Shown here: positions 2,125 through 17,307 of the stretch, in pieces
How positions within the stretch are numbered: the stretch's first letter is position 1
Layout of the letters: the number at the start of each line of letters is the position of its first letter
Source: Ectocarpus siliculosus
Taxonomy: Eukaryota > Sar > Phaeophyceae > Ectocarpales > Ectocarpaceae
DNA length: 26,635 nucleotides
Assembly: GCA_000310025.1 (NCBI GenBank)
Contig: FN649755.1
Span: 1,919,668-1,946,302, forward strand
Direction of reading: 5' to 3'
Made by a program: the position numbers and the translations under genes
The notes under the pieces: model-generated
What the model was told of the DNA's origin: nothing
Database searches by the model: none
Seen by the model: only the letters and a program-made list of their open reading frames with translations

Positions 2125-2490
2125 GTTTGCCGTGTTGGAGCTTTAGGTCAGAATGTTGTTCATTCCATTCCGCTCTCGTTTCTGCATCTCTGTCTTGTCC
2201 GCTCGCCGAAACCTCTGCTCCACCCGGGAGCCGGTAAACGAGACCTGCCAGTCTCGTTTTTTATACGCGACCCCGGGGACTAAACATGCCCATCCCCGGG
2301 GTCTCGTATGTTTTGCCGTGTTGGAGCTTTAGGTCAGAATGTTGTTCATTCCGCTCTCGTTTCTGCATCTCTGTCTTGTCCGCTCGCGGAAACCTCTGCT
2401 CCACCCGGGAGCCGGTAAACGAGACCTGCCAGTCTCGTTTTTTATACGCGACCCCGGGGACAAAACATGCCCATCCCAGGGGTCTCGTAT
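2125..2490 (+). repeat. 186-bp tandem duplication
   Basis: A segment beginning at GCCGTGTTGGAGC and ending at GGGGTCTCGTAT is present twice head to tail, about 2125-2309 and 2310-2490. The copies are nearly identical apart from a 5-bp repeat of ATTCC in the first and a few substitutions (CGCCG/CGCGG). The duplication includes the outer end of the palindrome-rich repeat described next, so the left copy of that repeat has two starts. High identity points to a recent event. Confidence 0.85.
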
Positions 2491-2840
2491 AAAAAACGAG
2501 ACCCCGGGGACAAAATGATCACATCCCCGGGGTCTCGTTTACTAAACGAGACCCCCGGGGACAGGACAGAACCATCCCCGGGGTTTCCACCCCCAGAATT
2601 ATGGCTCTCCCGCAGCTCGCAGCTGGGCGGGGCGCCGTGCACCAGACAACCACTTCGCTGTGTTTTAGGGCCTTTGAGACCTCAAGTAGGTGAAGAGCCT
2701 ATGGAAGATACAACCACTTCGCTGTGTTTTGAGACCTCAAGTAGGTAGGGAGCCTTTGGTGGATAGCAGTAGGACTGTTCCCGAGGGCAAGGCCATGCTG
2801 CTTGCTGATCGGGAGTCCCGCTGCGGAAGATGTAGGTGCT
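2226..2840 (+). repeat. Palindrome-rich repeat family, copy 1
   Basis: Starts at GAGCCGGTAAACGAGACC and ends near CTGCGGAAGAT. Its first half is a chain of inverted repeats built on GAGACCCCGGGGAC and its complement, alternately spaced by short AT-rich linkers (TATAAAAAAC, AAAATGATCACAT, TTTACTAAAC). Each arm can pair with either neighbour; the longest arms form stems of about 13-17 bp. The second half (2586-2840) is unique-looking sequence that includes a 64-bp duplication around CAACCACTTCGCTGTG (2647 and 2711). The same repeat lies in reverse at 16017-16378 without either duplication. Open frames across it (such as one starting at 2467) are by-products of the repeat. It may be a foldback or MITE-like element; no transposase or clear target duplication was found. 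Confidence 0.85.
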
Positions 2841-3616: not shown

Positions 3617-3660
3617 CTAGGGTAAGGTGGCCGCCCGCCGTAGGCGGCGGGACGGCCACC
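3617..3660 (-). mobile_element. Helitron 3' terminus: hairpin and CTAG
   Basis: Read on the minus strand, positions 3660-3626 fold into a hairpin: GGTGGCCG pairs with CGGCCACC and the inner CCCGCCG pairs with CGGCGGG, 15 bp in all, with a 4-nt loop and one bulged base. Five bases later comes CTAG (3620-3617), followed by T. A short GC-rich hairpin a few bases before a CTRR end, inserted between A and T without target duplication, is the defining 3' end of Helitron rolling-circle transposons. It lies 734 bp downstream of the passenger gene stop on the same strand as the Rep fragment, so orientation agrees. The spacing of 5 nt is shorter than the usual 10 or so. Confidence 0.8.
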
Positions 3661-4350
3661 CGGATATACGCACGAAGAAGGTCAATGAATGATTTGTGGA
3701 TGTGAAGTGCGGGAAATAGAAAGGAGGATGCAGGTTATGTCTATTAAAGGAGGATGTGGCAATGATGATACATCCCGCGACTTTGTTCACGACTGCAATT
3801 GAAGCGCAGTGACTTATGAGGGGCGATGAATGTGTAATCCCCATCATTTAATGAAAAGATCATTGGAAAGTATGCAGGATGGGCAGGCGGATGAATGACT
3901 CGGAAAGAGTCATCGGTGACGCCGCACTTTTGTTTCTGCAACGGAGTATTGGTGGTGAGTGTAATGCGCTCCTTGATAAGAATCAATGGTGAAAAGAGCA
4001 AGAAAACGGTGTTACCCGGTGTAGAAAGAAAGTGACGAAGATGATGTCGTGATAACTTCGAAAACAAAATCGCAATCGTGCAAGAAAGAATCGGAAAAGC
4101 CCTGAAGATGGAAGGGCAAAAAGCAGAAAATCCCGATTGCTATGCTACAGCGAAAGAAAGCGAAAAAAACTTACAAGGAAAACGCGCGCACTCATATACG
4201 CACCTCGGCAAGTACCGACTCTACAATAAGGAGTACATACGAAGCACCTACGTAGGTATGCAACGAAAACGTACGGGCCACCGCCGGGCGAGTGACGTCC
4301 AAATCCTGATGCTGTGTCCAACCCCCCGCCGTCGGGCGGCTAAAGAAGAA
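3661..4350 (-). other. 3' non-coding part of the Helitron
   Basis: Between the passenger gene stop and the terminal hairpin I see no supported gene. Open frames on both strands here lack splice or family support. The 3' untranslated region of the passenger transcript should lie here. Confidence 0.4.
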
Positions 4351-7300
4351 TCAATCTTCTTCATCGGAAGACGTGTCGTCGCTGGACGACGAAGCTTCTT
4401 CCTCGCCGGATGACGAAGCTTCGCCCTCGCTGGATGATGAAGAAGTCGGGTGTTCCTCGTCGCTGTTGTCGTCGATGGATATGATGTCAGGCTCGGGTGC
4501 AGACGAAGGTTCCTCGTCGTCGTCGCTGTCGTGGTGGACGGCTTTGTCCTTGGACTTACCGTTACCCTTGCGCTTGCGCTTGGTGTTAGTGGACGCTTTG
4601 GCCGCTGAGGAGCCGATCTCATCCATGGGTTCTTGTTTGATGGGTTTGCGGATGTCGACGAAGGCGCCGTTGACGAACTTGTGGCCGTGGATGATGTCGT
4701 TGGTCGAGACGGGCTTGAGCGCTAGGGCGGAAAGCGAGACGGTGTTCTGTTGAGTCCATAGTCCGCGCTTCATGGCGCACAGGAAGACGCGGTTGGTGAG
4801 GTGTTTGACGATCTTCTTCTTGGTTTTGTTGTCTTTGAGGACATACGATTCAGCGTCCATCCGAAACACCTCGTTGAGAACCTGATTGAGGGGAAGTGAT
4901 TATGGCGGCGAGGAAGATGACGGGTGGATGCAATGTGTAAGTGCATGTTGTACTGCGATGGAAGTGATGAACATGATCGCAAAAGAACGTATGGAATGAG
5001 TATCGTAGGGAAGGAAACGCACCTCGGTGGAGAAGGACACGGTAGTATTGACACGGTTCTTGTTGGCCAGGGGGTGGTTGTCGACGGTTTGAAATTTGTC
5101 GGCGACGGTGAAGAAGGAGAACGTGGAGAGTTGGTTCTTGCCGCGTTGTTCGTGGCCCTTCGTGGGCGCTGAGTTCTTGGTCTTCCGACACTGCGGAATC
5201 GGGAGAGTCGGATCGACAGTGAAGCGGCAGCCGTTGATGTTGCACACCAACCTGATGACGCTGTTGACGGAGTCGATGCTGATGATGGTGGGGTATGTGT
5301 CGTTGTGTGTGGTGCTGGCCATGAGATACTCGATGGTTTTGAAGTCTTTGGACGCGAGGGTGTCGGCGTAGATGGTCGTCGGAAGGACGAAGGAGGACGT
5401 TTTCGTAGACTCGAAGGAGAGAGCAGAAACGAGGAGGTCGCGGCGCGCCTTTTCAGCCTGAAGCAGATGGGGAGGGTAAGAAAGTCAATGGACGGAAGGG
5501 TTAGTAGGTAGTTATGGACAATTGATTGAAGGCAAAAGCGTTAATAGATAATGTTTGTTTAAAATGCGGCGATGGCAAAATAGGCAAACACAGCCATTAG
5601 AAGGGTACTTCATTCGCAGCTAGTAGATACGGACGCAACAATAGATGGGAGGTCATTGAATGTAATAGGGGCTTGTCGTATAAAAGCGCACTTTGAATTT
5701 CTGGCGCTTGTCTTCCTTGGATGCGGACACGGATTTCGACTTAGCCTGGTCAGGATGATCGGTGGTAAACATATCAGTGTGAATTGAAGGGATGCACGCG
5801 ACGGGATATGCACGAGGACGTGGGTTGCGGACGCGAGGCGTACCTTGGACTTGTCACGCTTGTCTTGTTTAGAGGCGGAGGACGTGCGCTTGTGCTTGCC
5901 CTGAAGAGGAAGGGATCCGAGGTGGCGACAAAAATGAGAGAGTAGAAAGAAGTGATGCGATTTGAAAAGAGTAGGTGAGGATTCAAAATGGGTTAATAGG
6001 GGGCTGTTATTATGTTGTGTAATAACGAGCGAACGATAGAGGGAAATGGTGGGAAGTAATGGCAGGGAAGGACAATACAGCAAGGGAAAAGCTACAAAAT
6101 GCACGCGATGAACGTATTGTGTTGCTGTTAAACATTTGGTGCAGCGACAGTTGTGTAGAAATTGCTAGAAATGGTGCTAGCGACGCGGACGGAGAGCGAT
6201 AAAGGGAAATGTGTTCAGCGCTTATATTGAGAAGATAACAGGAAATGTTGACCTTGGTTGCACGCCTCTTTTCGAGTGTGTTGTGCGCGTCGTCGTTGTC
6301 GTCGGGAACGAGTGTGGAAAGGGAAAGGATGGAATAGTGTCACATAGAGTCGTGTACACTATTCGGGAAGGACTCTAGTTGAAGTGTAGCGAGAGGTCGT
6401 TTAAACGAAGTATTATGAAAGGCGCTAGGAGCGATAAAGTGAAATGGGTGGGGGGCAATATGTTGAGAAAACAGCAGAAAAAGATCACCTTCGTTGTACG
6501 ACGTTTTTTGGATGTGGTGAGGGCGTCGTTGTCGTCCTCGTCGTCCTCGTCCTGTAATAAGTGGTATCGTACAGGATCGAGGAAGAGGAAGATATAATTG
6601 AAAACAGTGATTCAGTGAGTGATTCAATGCAGACGACAATGAGACGGTGAGGTAGAGATGAAGCGACAGTGACATATGATGATCAGGGGGAATTTGCATT
6701 GCATTAAACAAGTAAAGTTAGGTTCACCTGATCGTTGTTGGAGGGCTGAAGGGCTTGAGTTGATTTCTTGTTTCCTCGGTTAGACGCCGGCTTGATCTGA
6801 ATAGTGTGAACGAATGTGGATGGGAAACTTGAAAATGAATAGTATGGCATGGAGTCGTGTGTACACATACGGGGAAGGAAACCATTAGCGATGTAGCGAA
6901 AGATGGTTTAAGAAGCAGGTTTGTCATGGTGTCAGGAGCAGTAGTCGCGTAATGATGAGGGAGAGTAAATTTGCAGTAGGTTTGAGTATTTAGTAAATGG
7001 AGCGCGCGTCAGCGTGGCATTCGTGTTGAACTTGGTTGTGTGCGCAGTCAGGAGCGATAGGTTTGAGTACTTTAGTAGATGGAGGATGGAGCGCGCGTGA
7101 TCGTGGCATTCGTGTTGGACTTGATTGTGTGCGCAGTCAGGAGAGATAAAGTGAAATTAGTCGGGCGCTTTATGTGACAAAACAACAGAAAATGAACACC
7201 TTGGTTGTACGCTTTTTGGTGGATGTGGTGAGAGCGTCGTCGTCGTCCTCTTCGTGGTTGTCCTCGTCGTCCTCGTCCTGAAGGGATGGTATGGTACAGG

Positions 7301-8244
7301 ATCGAGGAAGAGGAAGAAATCAGTAAAAACAAGGCTTTAGTGTGTGATTTTGCGCATGCGATAATGAGAAAGTCAGGTTGAAATGGAGCGACTGTGACAT
7401 ATGATGAGCAGGGGGATATTGTTGTGCAGGAAAGGAGTGAAGTCAGATTCACCTGATCGTTGTTGGAGGGCTCAAGGGCGAGAGTTGATTTCTTCTTTCC
7501 TGGCTTAGATGCCGGCTTGGCCTGAATATTGCGAACGAATGTGGAAGGTGTTGTTGGAAATGAATAGTTGACATAGAGTTGTGTACACACCATTTGAGGA
7601 AGTAAGCCAATAGCGACGTAGCGAAAGATCGTTTAAGCATTAGGTTGCGAAGGCGTCAGGAGCAATAATCGCGAAATGATGAGGAAAAGTACAATTAGAG
7701 AAGGTTTAAGTACCTTAGTTGATGGAGCGCGCGTCGGTGTAGCACCTGTGCTGGACATGATTGTCTGCGCAGCATAACGTTCGTAACAGTGGAGTGGGCG
7801 GAAGAATGTACATGTTTGAAAGCGCAGGGACGGCGAAGTGTGTTCGGGGACGATGGAATGTGTGGGTGTTTTGCACAGTCAACGGAATGCGGAGACCCTG
7901 AAAATAAAGGGAAAGGGTACACATTCGGCGAGGTCGAGAAAGTAAGTGTTGAGGACGGCAGCGAAGATTGTGATAGAAAGGGGCATGACGATAGATGATG
8001 TGCGTCCAGCAAGCACAATGGACTCGTCATCGTTGTGGATACACGGCACATATAGGATGTGCAAGGAGAGGCAAGATTTAGGAGGTGTAGGAAGGTTCCG
8101 AACGCGAGGGTTAGGCAGCCACAGATTGAGGTGAGGTGAATGTGTGTGATGGCGCGCGGAAGAATAGCAATATCTACGGATAGTCACCTGTGTACTTTCA
8201 GCGTTGACGGGCTTCTTCTTGCGCAACGTCATTCGCGAAGCCAT
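4351..8244 (-). CDS. Ten-exon passenger gene in the Helitron, acidic/basic nuclear-type protein of unknown function
   Basis: Exons on the minus strand: 8244-8188, 7764-7714, 7521-7453, 7277-7200, 6796-6728, 6551-6489, 5900-5844, 5745-5692, 5457-5023, 4881-4351. Every exon is a multiple of 3, every junction is phase 0 with GT-AG, and the joined product is about 487 aa. Start: ATG in ACCATGG at 8244. The first 165 residues are low-complexity: MASRMTLRKKKPVNAES, lysine/serine stretches (KPGKKKSTLALEPSNNDQ) and acidic runs (DEDDEDNHEEDDDD) ending in KKRTTK. Exons 9-10 give a compact region of about 230 aa (KARRDLLVSALSFES to VDIRKPIKQEPMDEIG), with three cysteines (VCNINGC, IPQC), that I do not recognise. 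The C-terminus has a nuclear-localisation-like KRKRKGNGKSK and a serine/acidic tail ending SSDEED. Nuclear location and nucleic-acid or chromatin binding are inference. Helitrons of other lineages can carry RPA-like ssDNA-binding genes; I cannot show that this is one. Confidence 0.7.
6253..6303 (-). pseudogene. Relic acidic exon (third copy of the DEDDED exon)
   Basis: Minus-strand 17 codons reading DDNDDAHNTLEKRRATK, clearly related to the exons at 7277-7200 and 6551-6489, and followed by a similar intron start (gtcaacattt...). The donor GT survives, but the base run before the exon (CTCGTTCCC) has no AG, so the acceptor is lost and the exon should be skipped. It was left out of the gene model. 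Confidence 0.6.
6989..7039 (-). pseudogene. Relic of passenger exon 2 (copy a)
   Basis: Exactly 51 nt like the live exon 7764-7714, and 725 bp away from it. It reads TTKFNTNATLTRAPFTK against TIMSSTGATPTRAPSTK. The acceptor has changed from gcgcag to gcgcac and the donor GT is gone. Non-functional remnant of the duplicated module. Confidence 0.7.
7071..7128 (-). pseudogene. Relic of passenger exon 2 (copy b)
   Basis: A further copy of exon 2, reading TIKSNTNATITRAPSSIY then stop. It has the same lost acceptor (gcgcac) as copy a and a 7-nt insertion, so copies a and b share a damaged ancestor and arose by a later local duplication of about 85 bp. Confidence 0.65.
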
Positions 8245-8251
8245 GGTAGTT

Positions 8252-8853
8252 CTAGGCGGACCGTGGTAGGGGTGTCAAGACCAATTGTCCGTTACTGCAG
8301 CAAATGCCACGAGATTCACCTGTAGAAGTACAGGTGGTTGGCATGTCATTAACTATAGTTGTAGGCTGTGGCTTATAAGAACAGACGAGTGTAAATGATC
8401 GGCGTGAGGGGAGATTGAATTTGACAGTTTCATGGATATATGCCGGAATATAGCAAAGTTGGAAAACTCACCTTTGAACAACTGAGCACCGCAGTGTTGG
8501 CATGGGGAAGCAATATCAACGATGATGTTGGCAGCCCGTTGTGCGGTGTTGATGATGTCGTTCCGTGCATCCAACGTAAATGCTCTCTGTTCTTCGTTGC
8601 ACTCTGGACGAAGCAAAGGTAGTTCCCAGAACTGGGAGATGGTGGTGGACATGTTAGGACTACGCACGTATGTTGATCTAGGACGGGCGTTGTCGTGTCT
8701 GACATGTTGCTCATTAATTTGTCCCCCGCGACTGCTTCCATCACGTGAATTTCTGCGACAATTGAATGTTTCGTTCCTCCTCGCGCGTCGAAGTCGTTGT
8801 TGTTCGTTGCGTCGGTTCTGTTGAGCTCTCGAGTATTGTCGTGTTGACGGCAT
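8252..8853 (-). CDS. Helitron Rep/helicase N-terminal fragment
   Basis: Exon 8853-8472 begins MPSTRQYSRAQQNRRNEQQR, an Arg/Gln-rich basic start, and ends with SPCQHCGAQLFK. Exon 8319-8252 continues GESRGICCSNGQLVLTPLP and then stops. The intron is GT-AG (AAAG|gtgagt, CTACAG|GTGAA) and restores frame (127 codons plus 1 nt, then 2 nt). The joined motif CxxCGAxxFKGE...GICCSNGxxxLxPLP is the zinc-ribbon-like block that precedes the Helitron-like N-terminal and Rep domains in Helitron proteins. A full protein is over 1,000 aa; this one is 149 aa and stops three residues after the motif, so Rep and helicase are missing. The stop lies 7 nt before the ATG of the passenger gene, so both may sit on one transcript. 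An open frame extends further upstream (to 9309), but the codons there overlap tandem repeats, so I start at 8853. Confidence 0.75.
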
Positions 8854-8982
8854 CGGAAACGGCAGTGGAGGTGTGTGTGTGTGCCGCGTATATGATTGCG
8901 GCGGAAATGTAGATACGTAGATGCGTAGATGCGTAGATGCGTACTGTAGATGCGGGTAAACAAAATATGCGGCGGAAATTTT
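8854..8982. repeat. Short TAGATGCG repeat upstream of the Rep fragment
   Basis: At 8910-8952 the motif GTAGATGCG/GTAGATACG recurs four to five times in tandem. It is in the presumed 5' region of the Helitron. Confidence 0.6.
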
Positions 8983-9442
8983 ATTGGCGAGGTTGTGCGC
9001 AGGAAATCCGTAATTTGCCCGTATGCGGCAGCGGGCATGGGGCATCTGAATGCTGTAAATCTGCAGTGAGCATGGCCAATTGTAACTACTTGTCATGATG
9101 TGACGACGTTTGATGAATGCATAAAGGGTGGCGATGTTTGTGTTGTGTAATGTCACGTCCATGCGCGTCGATGCATGCAGAACGTGTACGTGGATGTTGG
9201 GAAGCACACAGCGGCTGAGGTCTACTTTTATTGGCGAGGTTGTGCGCAGGAAATCCGTATATTTGCCCGTATGCGGCAGCGGGCATGGCCAATTGTAACT
9301 ACTTGTCATGATGTGACGACGTTTGATGAATGCATAAAGGGTGGCAGATGTTTGTGTTGTGTAATGTCACGTCCATGCGCGTCGATGCATGCAGAACGTG
9401 TACGTGGATGTTGGGAAGCACACAGCGGCTGAGGTCTACTTT
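8983..9442 (+). repeat. Tandem direct repeat, period 247 bp
   Basis: Two copies starting at ATTGGCGAGGTTGTGCGC (8983 and 9230). They are almost identical, except that the second lacks about 33 bp containing GCATCTGAATGCTG, and ends at GAGGTCTACTTT (9228 and 9442). High identity indicates a recent duplication. It lies just inside the presumed Helitron 5' end, so it may be a terminal repeat of the element. Confidence 0.85.
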
Positions 9443-9659
9443 GGCGAAGGTCTCAAAGTCGGTGTCATAATGAGCAAGGCGTCATTCCTTTGGTAGGAAT
9501 CATAAAGTGCACGTGATGAACGCACTTGCGTGGTTTCAAGTCGTGATATGGAGTATTGGGCGAGAGAGGCCAAAAAAAGATAAAAAAAAAAAAATCTAAC
9601 CCCATATGAAGCGGATGCATTCATTAATCAAGATGTGGGACTCATTAGCCGAATCGTGA

Positions 9660-15045: not shown

Positions 15046-16016
15046 CTATTTCTGCTTAGTTGTTGTTGTTGTTGTCGTTTTCTCACATTAGCTCTAGCCC
15101 ACAAAAGATGGGGAACCCGTCGTCTCAAAACCCGGCATACACGACCCCACGAACGAAACAAAAAAAAATAGGGTATCCCTGCATGAACCCGGGGAAACGT
15201 TTGCTGTCCGTGAAGCACATAGTACAGCAGTATTTCGACTACAATGCAGCAGTATTTCGACTACATACAAAAAATCTAGGCGATTTTCATCCCGCGCACG
15301 CTCTCCACTGCCACTTGATGCTCGATATATTATTACTTTGTACTGCCGTGCTATATCCCTGGTGGTGCTGTGCTGGCGTGATTTCCTGGTGTGTTCATGG
15401 TATGAGGTGGTTTGGCCCCGCCGTGCTTCGCTGTGAGCCTGCCTGCTGGCTTAGCCTGCCTGCTGTTGAGGTGCTGTTGAGGGGTTGAGTGCTCGTGACG
15501 CAATACGTGACGTGTAAAGTTGAAATTCAAAAAGAGCCTCCGCTCTGAGGTCCTGCCCGCCGAATCGCTCATTATCCCGCACTGCAACACGGCGACCCAA
15601 CAACTTTGCTGTGGACTCAGCATTTTTGCTGCTGTCCTAAATGGCGTGATCCTCTACCTTAGACGTCATTCAACATCGCCGTGCTTTGCTTGGGCCTGCC
15701 TCGCTCTGCTGTGCTGTTGGGGCTGTCGCTCTGGGGCTGTCGCTCTGCTGCTGTGCTGTGTGTGCCCATGAGGTCTCCACCCCTGAGCGCAACCCTTACG
15801 GCGAGGCCGCATCACCAACGGCAAAATTATCACGGGCTAGTGCACCACCAACACAACATATCCGCATGCGGTGGGGTTGACACCACAGACATTCGTTCGG
15901 CTACTCTCTTTGGGCAACTCTCTTTGGCCCACCTGTTGTCGTTGTTGTCGTTGTTCTCGTTGTTCTCGCTCTTGCTTGTCATCTTCCCGCCCTTACTTTT
16001 CACGATCGACGCTCGA
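15046..16016. other. Non-coding stretch with simple repeats
   Basis: No supported gene. It has a (GTT)n run at 15060-15076, a 19-bp direct repeat GCAGTATTTCGACTACA at 15229 and 15248, GCTGTGCT-rich sequence at 15700-15765 and a (GTTGTT/GTTCTC) run at 15936-15972. Confidence 0.4.
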
Positions 16017-16378
16017 TATCTTCCGCAGCGGGACTCCCGATCAGCAGGCAGCACGGCCTTGCCCTCGGGCACAGTCCTACTGCTATCCATCAAAGGCTCC
16101 CTACGTAGTTGAGGTCTCAAAACACAGCGTAGTGGTTGTCTGGTGCACGGCGCCCCGCCCAGCTGCGAGCTGCGGGAGAGCCATAATTCTGGGGGTGGAA
16201 ACCCCGGGGATGGTTCTGTCCTGTCCCCGGGGGTCTCGTTTAGTATGCGAGACCCCGGGGATGTGATCATTTTGTCCCCGGGGTCTCGCATAAAAAACGA
16301 GACCCCGGGGATGGGCATTTTTTGTCCCCGGGGTCGCGTATAAAAAACGAGACTGGCAGGTCTCGTTTACCGGCTCCC
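16017..16378 (-). repeat. Palindrome-rich repeat family, copy 2 (inverted)
   Basis: Reverse complement of the repeat at 2226-2840, with the same end GAGCCGGTAAACGAGACC (here complemented, at 16378) and the same inner limit at CTGCGGAAGAT. It has the same chain of GAGACCCCGGGGAC palindromes but lacks both the 186-bp and the 64-bp duplications, so it is closer to the original form. Outside both ends the two copies are unrelated. The copy ends 50-80 bp from the LINE remnant. Confidence 0.88.
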
Positions 16379-16429
16379 CTACAGCAGCAGTACTACAGCT
16401 ATTGTAGTTGCCGTACCACCAAACACCAA

Positions 16430-17307
16430 CCAGCCCAACGTTCTCGCCCTGCCCTACTACCGACTTCCGGTACCTCGGTGGCCTCGTCAACGAACATGGC
16501 GACCTCACCCGGGAGATCAGCTACAGGAGCAGAGGAGCGTGGGCGTGCCTCAGGCGATATGGCCAGGAGCTCTTCGACAGACCGAAAGCGCCATTCCGAC
16601 TCAAGATCCGCCTCCTCCAGGCGGAGGCGATGGAGGCACTGCTGTACGGCTGCATGACATGGTCACCACTCAGCGGCCACTATCAGACGCTGCGGTCGAC
16701 ACACCACCGACTGCTCCTTCGAGTTATTATCGGGTACAAGCGCAAGAAGGACACCTACCGGCAGCTCTCGTACGCCCAGACGCTGAAGAGGGTCGAATGC
16801 CAGAGCGTTGAAGCCACGATCCGACAACGACGCCTACTGTTCGCGGGAGCACTGGCAAGGCAGCCGGACGGGCGACTCCCGAAACGACTGATGCTTGGCG
16901 AGCTGGCGGGGGGGGAGAAGCCACGTAGGGGGGGACAGGAACAGAACTGGCCGACGTGTGTTCTCGACGACCTGAAGGCCTTCGGGGCCGACCACGGATC
17001 TACGAAAACCGACCCAAGTTGTCTCGGAATTCCCGTACCGAAAGACACGGCACCGAAGTCAAGGTGGACGGAAGCCGCGAAGGTGGAGGGGGGAGTACCC
17101 TGGCATGCGGCGGTGCTGCAGGGAGCTGAGAGGTTCATGACCTCCTGGCACGAGAAGGAAGAAGAGGCCAGCCGACAACGAGCGCTCAAACGAAACCACA
17201 AGCCAACAACCAATGGGGCGGGAGGGCGGCAGGAGACGGACGAGACGGCGAGGGAAGAAAGCAAACGAGAAGAGACGGACCGAGTGGCACGACACGTGCC
17301 GGATTGA
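16430..17307 (+). pseudogene. 5'-truncated LINE: C-terminal end of reverse-transcriptase ORF2
   Basis: Open frame ending at 17307. It reads TDFRYLGGLVNEHGDLTREI, then SRGAWACLRRYG, KIRLLQAEAMEALLYGCMTW, THHRLLLRVIIGYKR, RQRRLLFAGALARQPDGRLP and GGEKPRRGGQEQNW. This is the post-polymerase (thumb and connection) region of ORF2 of non-LTR retrotransposons: F.YLG, a helix with K..L..A....LLYG...W, H...LR.I.G, R.L..G...R..D.RLPK and the GG..K.RGG....W block. The fingers and palm with the YADD active site and the endonuclease are missing, so it is a dead 5'-truncated insertion, the usual outcome of target-primed reverse transcription. The highly charged end (KREETDRVARHVPD) is intact. The frame can be followed back to about 16408, but its first 20 codons look unrelated. 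Confidence 0.82.

What the first reader, a model, noticed from the sequence alone, without database searches (positions are those of the whole stretch)
3617..9580. Helitron with only the Rep zinc block left, carrying a complex ten-exon passenger gene
The minus strand shows a Helitron 3' end (hairpin, CTAG, T), the Helitron N-terminal motif CQHCGAQLFKGE...GICCSNG, and between them a gene whose ten exons are all phase 0. Rep and helicase are gone. Helitrons are known to capture host genes, but a retained Rep leader directly ahead of an apparently intact passenger gene is an uncommon layout. Either a host gene was captured and is expressed from the Helitron promoter, or this is a standard accessory gene of an undescribed Helitron lineage, perhaps acting on ssDNA or chromatin.
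Basis: partly seen in the sequence, partly recalled or inferred. Interest (0 to 1): 0.85.

Follow-up and report, generated by a model that had tools for sequence, protein, structure and literature searches.

The report
Helitron carrying a lineage-specific accessory gene
A jumping gene (a rolling-circle Helitron) in what looks like a brown-alga genome has lost its own replication enzyme but kept a ten-exon helper gene of unknown fold; relatives in the same genome suggest this helper is a regular part of that Helitron lineage rather than a stolen host gene.

Summary
The element spans 9659 to 3617 on the minus strand (6043 bp; 5' A|TC, 3' hairpin, CTAG|T), and other genomic copies share its ends. 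Copy C111 keeps the zinc block, Rep and the start of a PIF1 helicase, then jumps into the passenger's last exon and the same 3' end. The window copy made the complementary deletion: Rep/helicase lost, passenger kept. A second Helitron family (300 matching 3' ends) has Rep copies and passenger copies with one 3' end; its passenger is about 25% identical, with the same phase-0 intron and an acidic tail. Two more decayed elements have passenger sequence just downstream of Rep/helicase sequence, same strand. So the passenger is most likely an accessory gene of this Helitron lineage, not a recent host capture. No intact element with everything was found. The product matches nothing useful in Pfam, PHROGs, NCBIfam or PDB sequences. 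An ssDNA-binding role is my best guess, by analogy with the RPA-only rice Helitron Mothra and a C-x4-C-x12-C...H pattern, but the profile test against RPA failed and the fold attempt was uninformative. New variant of a known kind; moderate interest.

The parts
3617..9659 (-). whole Helitron, RepHel-less deletion derivative, 6043 bp, inserted between A (9660) and T (3616)
   Evidence: ends shared by copies C111 and C217 (both ends) and C26 (5' end only):
9650..9659 (-). 5' terminus TCACGATTCG
   Evidence: 4 copies (3 independent insertions)
8979..9442 (-). 5' subterminal stretch whose parts (9442-9226 and 9228-8979) match overlapping pieces of C111, a diverged repeat
8472..8853 (-). first coding exon of the Helitron protein, ends in CQHCGAQLFK/G
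   Evidence: 98.5% identical over 129 aa to C111 (L018) and C217; donor read
8263..8319 (-). start of the second Rep exon, ESRGICCSNGQLVLTPLP, cut by the deletion at 8263
   Evidence: homology to C111 stops at 8263; acceptor read
8188..8244 (-). passenger exon 1, MASRMTLRKKKPVNAESTQ
7714..7764 (-). passenger exon 2, TIMSSTGATPTRAPSTK (STGATPT also readable in the family-2 copy C121)
7453..7521 (-). passenger exon 3
7200..7277 (-). passenger exon 4
6728..6796 (-). passenger exon 5 (duplicate of exon 3)
6489..6551 (-). passenger exon 6 (duplicate of exon 4)
5844..5900 (-). passenger exon 7
5692..5745 (-). passenger exon 8
5023..5457 (-). passenger exon 9, core with the C-x4-C-x12-C...H pattern
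4351..4881 (-). passenger exon 10, rest of core, basic linker, acidic/serine tail, stop
   Evidence: from 4654 to the 3' end shared with C111 at 98.7%
3617..3664 (-). 3' hairpin, TTACC spacer and CTAG terminus

Best explanation
It is a non-autonomous deletion derivative of a Helitron whose parent had, in one orientation, zinc block, Rep, PIF1 helicase, and a separate downstream multi-exon accessory gene. Internal deletions gave complementary children: the window copy lost Rep/helicase and kept the accessory gene, C111 kept Rep and the start of the helicase and lost most of the accessory gene, C217 kept the ends and a little Rep. Such copies would move with RepHel supplied in trans through the shared ends (inferred). 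The accessory product has a low-complexity basic/acidic N-terminus, a ~230-aa core with a putative CCCH metal site, and an acidic tail; I think it most likely helps rolling-circle transposition by binding the displaced single strand, in the role proposed for RPA in plant Helitrons (inferred, about 0.4; a chromatin or histone-binding helper is the main alternative). Deletion structure and shared ends are shown by alignment; the parent's full gene order is inferred from pieces; protein function is not shown. The confidence given is for the architecture and lineage claim.
For: Shared ends and complementary deletions: window, C111, C217. C111 has Helitron_like_N and PIF1 matches and is fused to passenger exon 10. 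Second Helitron family: Rep copies C71:197k, C460 and C12:872k and passenger copies C71:28k and C173 end in the same hairpin + CCTTAACCCTAG|T; the C71 Rep and passenger copies are 96.8% identical over 1484 bp of 3' region; 300 places match this end with up to 2 mismatches, 0 in the reversed control. Passenger homology between families on both core exons (tblastn on fetched loci, E 5.8e-6 and 1.7e-4 for C71), same phase-0 intron between them, acidic tail. C12:3.43M: PIF1 (E 1.7e-16, on a query read across one stop) then the passenger core about 1 kb downstream, same strand, 51% identical to family 2 over 115 aa. C16:3.209M: a homologue of the stretch just before the PIF1 domain (44.6% over 175 aa) then passenger last-exon sequence (55% over 42 and 63% over 27 aa) about 0.5 kb downstream, same strand. 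Between families 2 and 3 the passenger DNA gives no blastn match while the protein aligns (dN 0.41 over 112 codons, dS not computable).
Against: No single element with Rep, full helicase and intact passenger was found; the parent is inferred. In the whole-genome search the family-2 passengers scored only E 0.21, 0.38 and 0.92; the better values come from a small database with filters off, and the exon-10 match runs into the low-complexity tail. Of 7 helicase regions whose downstream DNA was fetched, 3 (C111, C12:3.43M, C16:3.209M) have passenger sequence and 4 (C464, C30:3.395M, C254, C12:2.81M) show none better than E 0.03; C12:2.81M is 6118 N of 9900, and C254 and C12:2.81M belong to a more distant helicase group, about 30% identical. 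The 3 fetched Rep copies of family 2 lack the passenger. Two passenger fragments (C13, C19) show no Helitron end in the 9.0 and 3.2 kb held, and C121's 3' end was not found. Among three family-2 copies dN/dS is 1 or more in 5 of 6 exon comparisons and dS is zero in the sixth. Profile comparison with RPA-C: probability 0.1%, E 0.39. Fold of exon 9 alone: mean pLDDT 32.9.
Confidence: 0.75

Rival explanations
1. The passenger is a recently captured host gene, expressed from the Helitron promoter.
For: It is the only intact close copy found in the genome, and its first ATG sits 18 bp behind the retained Rep leader, as a promoter capture would place it.
Against: No host paralogue found; 6 of the 9 passenger-like loci are in a shown Helitron context; about 25% identity with a shared intron position means an old association.
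Confidence: 0.07
2. The passenger is a Helitron RPA (RPA70-C-like zinc-ribbon OB fold) diverged beyond sequence detection, so the element is the counterpart of Mothra. This is a special case of the best explanation.
For: C-x4-C-x12-C spacing close to RPA70's C-x4-C-x13-C; three Cys and a downstream His invariant in 5 rows, three of them near-identical; strands predicted in that stretch (very low confidence); RPA genes are recurrent Helitron accessories.
Against: hhalign probability 0.1%; no Pfam Rep_fac-A_C match for any of 5 members at E up to 10, though HMMER's filters drop most weak matches; no PDB RPA hit; RPA's fourth Cys is missing. PF08646 matches one place only in this genome, C16:734-736k in four pieces, taken to be the host RPA1.
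Confidence: 0.3
3. The passenger is functionless cargo captured once by an ancestral Helitron and carried along.
For: Near-neutral change among recent copies; several fetched Helitron copies lack it.
Against: Reading frame, intron position, Cys pattern and acidic tail kept between families whose passenger DNA no longer aligns.
Confidence: 0.15

Closest known systems
DHH_Mothra mother element of rice (PMC4683698)
   Same: RepHel-less Helitron of 6.5 kb with one complete multi-exon accessory gene, a deletion derivative, and a proposed RepHel-bearing sister family (passages, section 7)
   Different: its gene is a recognisable RPA; here no homology to RPA is detected, and a Rep zinc leader is retained
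proto-Helentron-Pi of Phytophthora infestans (PMC4067079)
   Same: stramenopile Helitron-like element, 3' CTAG, A|T insertion, extra ORFs including two hypothetical proteins (passages, section 11)
   Different: 5' TT rather than TC, intron-less 1783-aa Rep/Helicase, SET-domain ORF; its hypothetical proteins were not compared here
Ectocarpus Helitrons (PMC12477816)
   Same: brown-alga genome; a table row gives 13 Helitron entries and 1.10% (passages)
   Different: no accessory gene content in the passages seen; supplements not opened

Membership tests
Helitron | 5' TC and 3' CTRR, insertion between A and T | tested here: met
   A|TC...CTAG|T in window, C111, C217
Helitron | 3' GC-rich hairpin a few bases before CTRR | tested here: met
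Helitron | several copies with the same ends at unrelated sites | tested here: met
   3 exact 3' ends with different flanks
Helitron | precise empty site without target duplication | tested here: inconclusive
   joined 402-base flank query found no empty site in the assembly
Helitron | RepHel protein | tested here: not met
   only the N-terminal block is left in the window copy; Rep and the helicase start are in copy C111. The window copy is therefore filed as a non-autonomous derivative, not as an autonomous Helitron
Helitron-encoded RPA | sequence/profile similarity to RPA70 | tested here: not met
Helitron-encoded RPA | OB fold | tested here: inconclusive
   mean pLDDT 32.9 for exon 9 alone
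Helentron | C-terminal AP-endonuclease on RepHel | not tested
   the C-terminus of this lineage's helicase was not recovered

The most novel reading that the evidence does not exclude
A Helitron lineage of brown algae encodes a previously undescribed class of accessory protein, unrelated to those known in Helitrons (RPA, OTU protease, AP-endonuclease, SET; Fanzor from a paper listing, and recall), with a CCCH-coordinated core and acidic tail, kept under selection as a transposition helper and able to persist alone on RepHel-less copies.
Probability: 0.4. Interest if true: 0.65.

Novelty: new variant of a known kind. Interest (0 to 1): 0.48.

Why it matters
As far as I know (recall and four paper searches), Helitron accessory genes outside plants and animals are little charted. 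A helper gene that recurs next to RepHel in what looks like a stramenopile genome would give a handle on what rolling-circle transposition needs beyond RepHel, and on how an autonomous element splits into complementary partial copies.

Tried and rejected
RPA identity of the passenger: rejected as a membership claim after profile, Pfam and PDB sequence searches; kept as a functional guess. Other library matches were of no weight: Pfam best E 0.064, PHROGs 0.2 (3 of 5 members) and 0.32, NCBIfam none, PDB 0.95. Relatives in viral contigs: none, for the passenger alignment (20 pattern matches, none confirmed) or the Rep piece. Empty site: none in the assembly. The 5' end of family 2 was not settled (C71 and C460 differ just before TGTTTTTGC). 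DNA upstream of the C71:28k passenger, beyond an N gap, holds frames that look by eye like a Ty1/copia-type retrotransposon and no Rep or helicase match.

Host: probably a brown alga, because EsV-1-7 repeats (PF19114) give 150 scored matches of 880 candidates and ring in 0 of 14 control genomes. That this family is large in brown algae is recalled; two papers listed name it but were not opened.

Full report
The window lies at G000:C30:1919668-1946302 in a 189-Mb, 492-contig assembly. The element is on the minus strand. Its 3' end is a strong hairpin (-35.4 kcal/mol), TTACC, then CTAG at 3617 followed by T; it is the only site in the 10 kb scanned that passed the filter, while a stricter stem script missed it. 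The exact 22-base end occurs at 3 places in the genome, plus 5 with two mismatches, against 0 for the reversed pattern. The 5' regions of the window, C111, C217 and C26 agree from A|TCACGATTCGG onward; C217 and C26 share a flank and count as one insertion. The element is thus 9659-3617, 6043 bp, with Helitron TC and CTAG ends. No empty site was found in the assembly.

The zinc block is the N-terminus of a Helitron protein. In C111 (L018) the same first exon (98.5% identical) is followed by a frame with a Helitron_like_N match (E 5.9e-13) and a later frame with the start of a PIF1 helicase (E 2.1e-8). The window's homology to C111 stops at 8263 and resumes at 4654; between them lies the passenger gene. 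In C111 the helicase frame stops after the Walker A region and joins passenger exon 10 at the position of 4654, then goes on to the same 3' end, 98.7% identical. C217 is a smaller derivative that keeps some Rep sequence (93.9% over 114 aa) and about the last 443 bp. These are most simply complementary internal deletions of one parent that had Rep, helicase and passenger.

The passenger reads as ten exons, all phase 0 with GT/AG borders, from an ATG at 8244 to a stop at 4351 (the start of exon 10 at 4881). Exons 3-4 and 5-6 lie in a duplication spaced 725 bp, 78-80% identical. The ATG lies 18 bp after the deletion junction, so any promoter of its own further upstream has gone; if this copy is transcribed, the Helitron's own leader is the likely source (inference).

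Relatives of the passenger were found by protein search at E up to 10, by DNA alignment and by tblastn on fetched loci (composition adjustment and low-complexity filter off, small databases). Nine loci in all: window; C111 (tail only); C13:1500143 (63% identical fragment with a stop); C71:28k, C121:138k and C173:72k (family 2, 25% identical in the alignment, two core exons with the same phase-0 intron between them and an acidic tail); C12:3.43M (51% identical to family 2); C16:3.209M (last-exon sequence, 55-63% identical to family 2); C19:2.70M (fragment, 37-38%). In the genome-wide search the family-2 loci scored only E 0.21-0.92 and C19 0.06, so the case for family 2 rests on both exons matching in order, the intron position and the tail. 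Six of the nine are in a shown Helitron context: the window and C111 share both ends; C71 and C173 end in hairpin + CCTTAACCCTAG|T; C12:3.43M and C16:3.209M have Helitron Rep/helicase sequence just upstream in the same strand. C121 is 97.4-97.9% identical to the other two but its own 3' end was not found; C13 and C19 show no Helitron end in what was held.

The second family matters most. Three Rep-bearing copies fetched (C71:197k, C460, C12:872k; Rep 58-59% identical to C111 over most of the match) and the passenger-bearing copies C71:28k and C173 share the same 3' end, and the C71 pair is 96.8% identical over 1484 bp before it. The pattern of this end has 300 places in the genome with up to two mismatches, 0 for the control (100 places listed). 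So here too Rep and passenger travel on separate derivatives with one end. None of the three fetched Rep copies has the passenger, and no element with everything intact was found. Of seven helicase regions whose downstream DNA was fetched, three have passenger sequence and four do not, one of these four being mostly N and two belonging to a more distant helicase group.

Constraint: between families 1 and 2 a short piece of Rep DNA still aligns (72-74% over 237-263 bp) but the passenger DNA does not, so the passenger changes faster than Rep. Between families 2 and 3 the protein aligns at 51% with dN 0.41 and dS not computable, which fits long-term constraint but does not measure it. Among the three recent family-2 copies dN/dS is 1 or more, or dS is zero, as in decay after insertion.

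Function: no match of weight in Pfam, PHROGs or NCBIfam for the five aligned members or in PDB sequences. Three cysteines and one histidine are invariant in the five rows, of which three are near-identical. The window spacing C-x4-C-x12-C resembles the zinc ribbon of RPA70 (C-x4-C-x13-C-x2-C, sequence), but profile comparison with three RPA70-C sequences gave probability 0.1% and the single-sequence model of exon 9 is unusable. I commit to a single-strand-binding helper as most likely, at about 0.4, by analogy with plant Helitron RPA.

Literature: the Mothra paper (passages, section 7) describes a RepHel-less rice Helitron with one complete RPA gene and a deletion derivative, so the layout is known. 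Known accessory domains are named in PMC6431247 (passages) and PMC4067079 (passages; section 11). The Ectocarpus TE paper (passages) counts Helitrons without accessory content in those passages. In the listings of the four answered paper searches I saw no title or abstract start that describes this accessory gene; most subscription papers, Repbase entries and supplements were not searched.

Noticed in passing
window 2419-2748 (+) and 15830-16520 (-): The same kind of short tandem repeat in two places, read as PGVS/PGSR...RDPGDKM in translation.
   Followed up: no
window 16408-17307 (+): Open frame of 299 aa that looks by eye like the C-terminal part of a non-LTR reverse transcriptase; no Pfam match at E up to 1.
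   Followed up: partly
G000:C71 near 199.7k and 204.4k (L028 3746-5224 and 8845-9894): Two family-2 Helitron 3' ends in the same orientation about 4.7 kb apart, and diverged repeats of a few hundred bp in the 3' region of family-2 copies.
   Followed up: partly
G000 (150 scored places): Very large EsV-1-7 repeat family, pointing to a brown-alga host.
   Followed up: partly
L020 (C26:6303501-6310500), from about 2684: The C26 copy of the element's 5' region runs into a stretch of N and then other DNA, so its 3' part is not seen.
   Followed up: no
G000:C16:1889830-1889916 (L017): An 86-bp piece of the element's 5' region (window 9606-9521, 95% identical) on its own.
   Followed up: no
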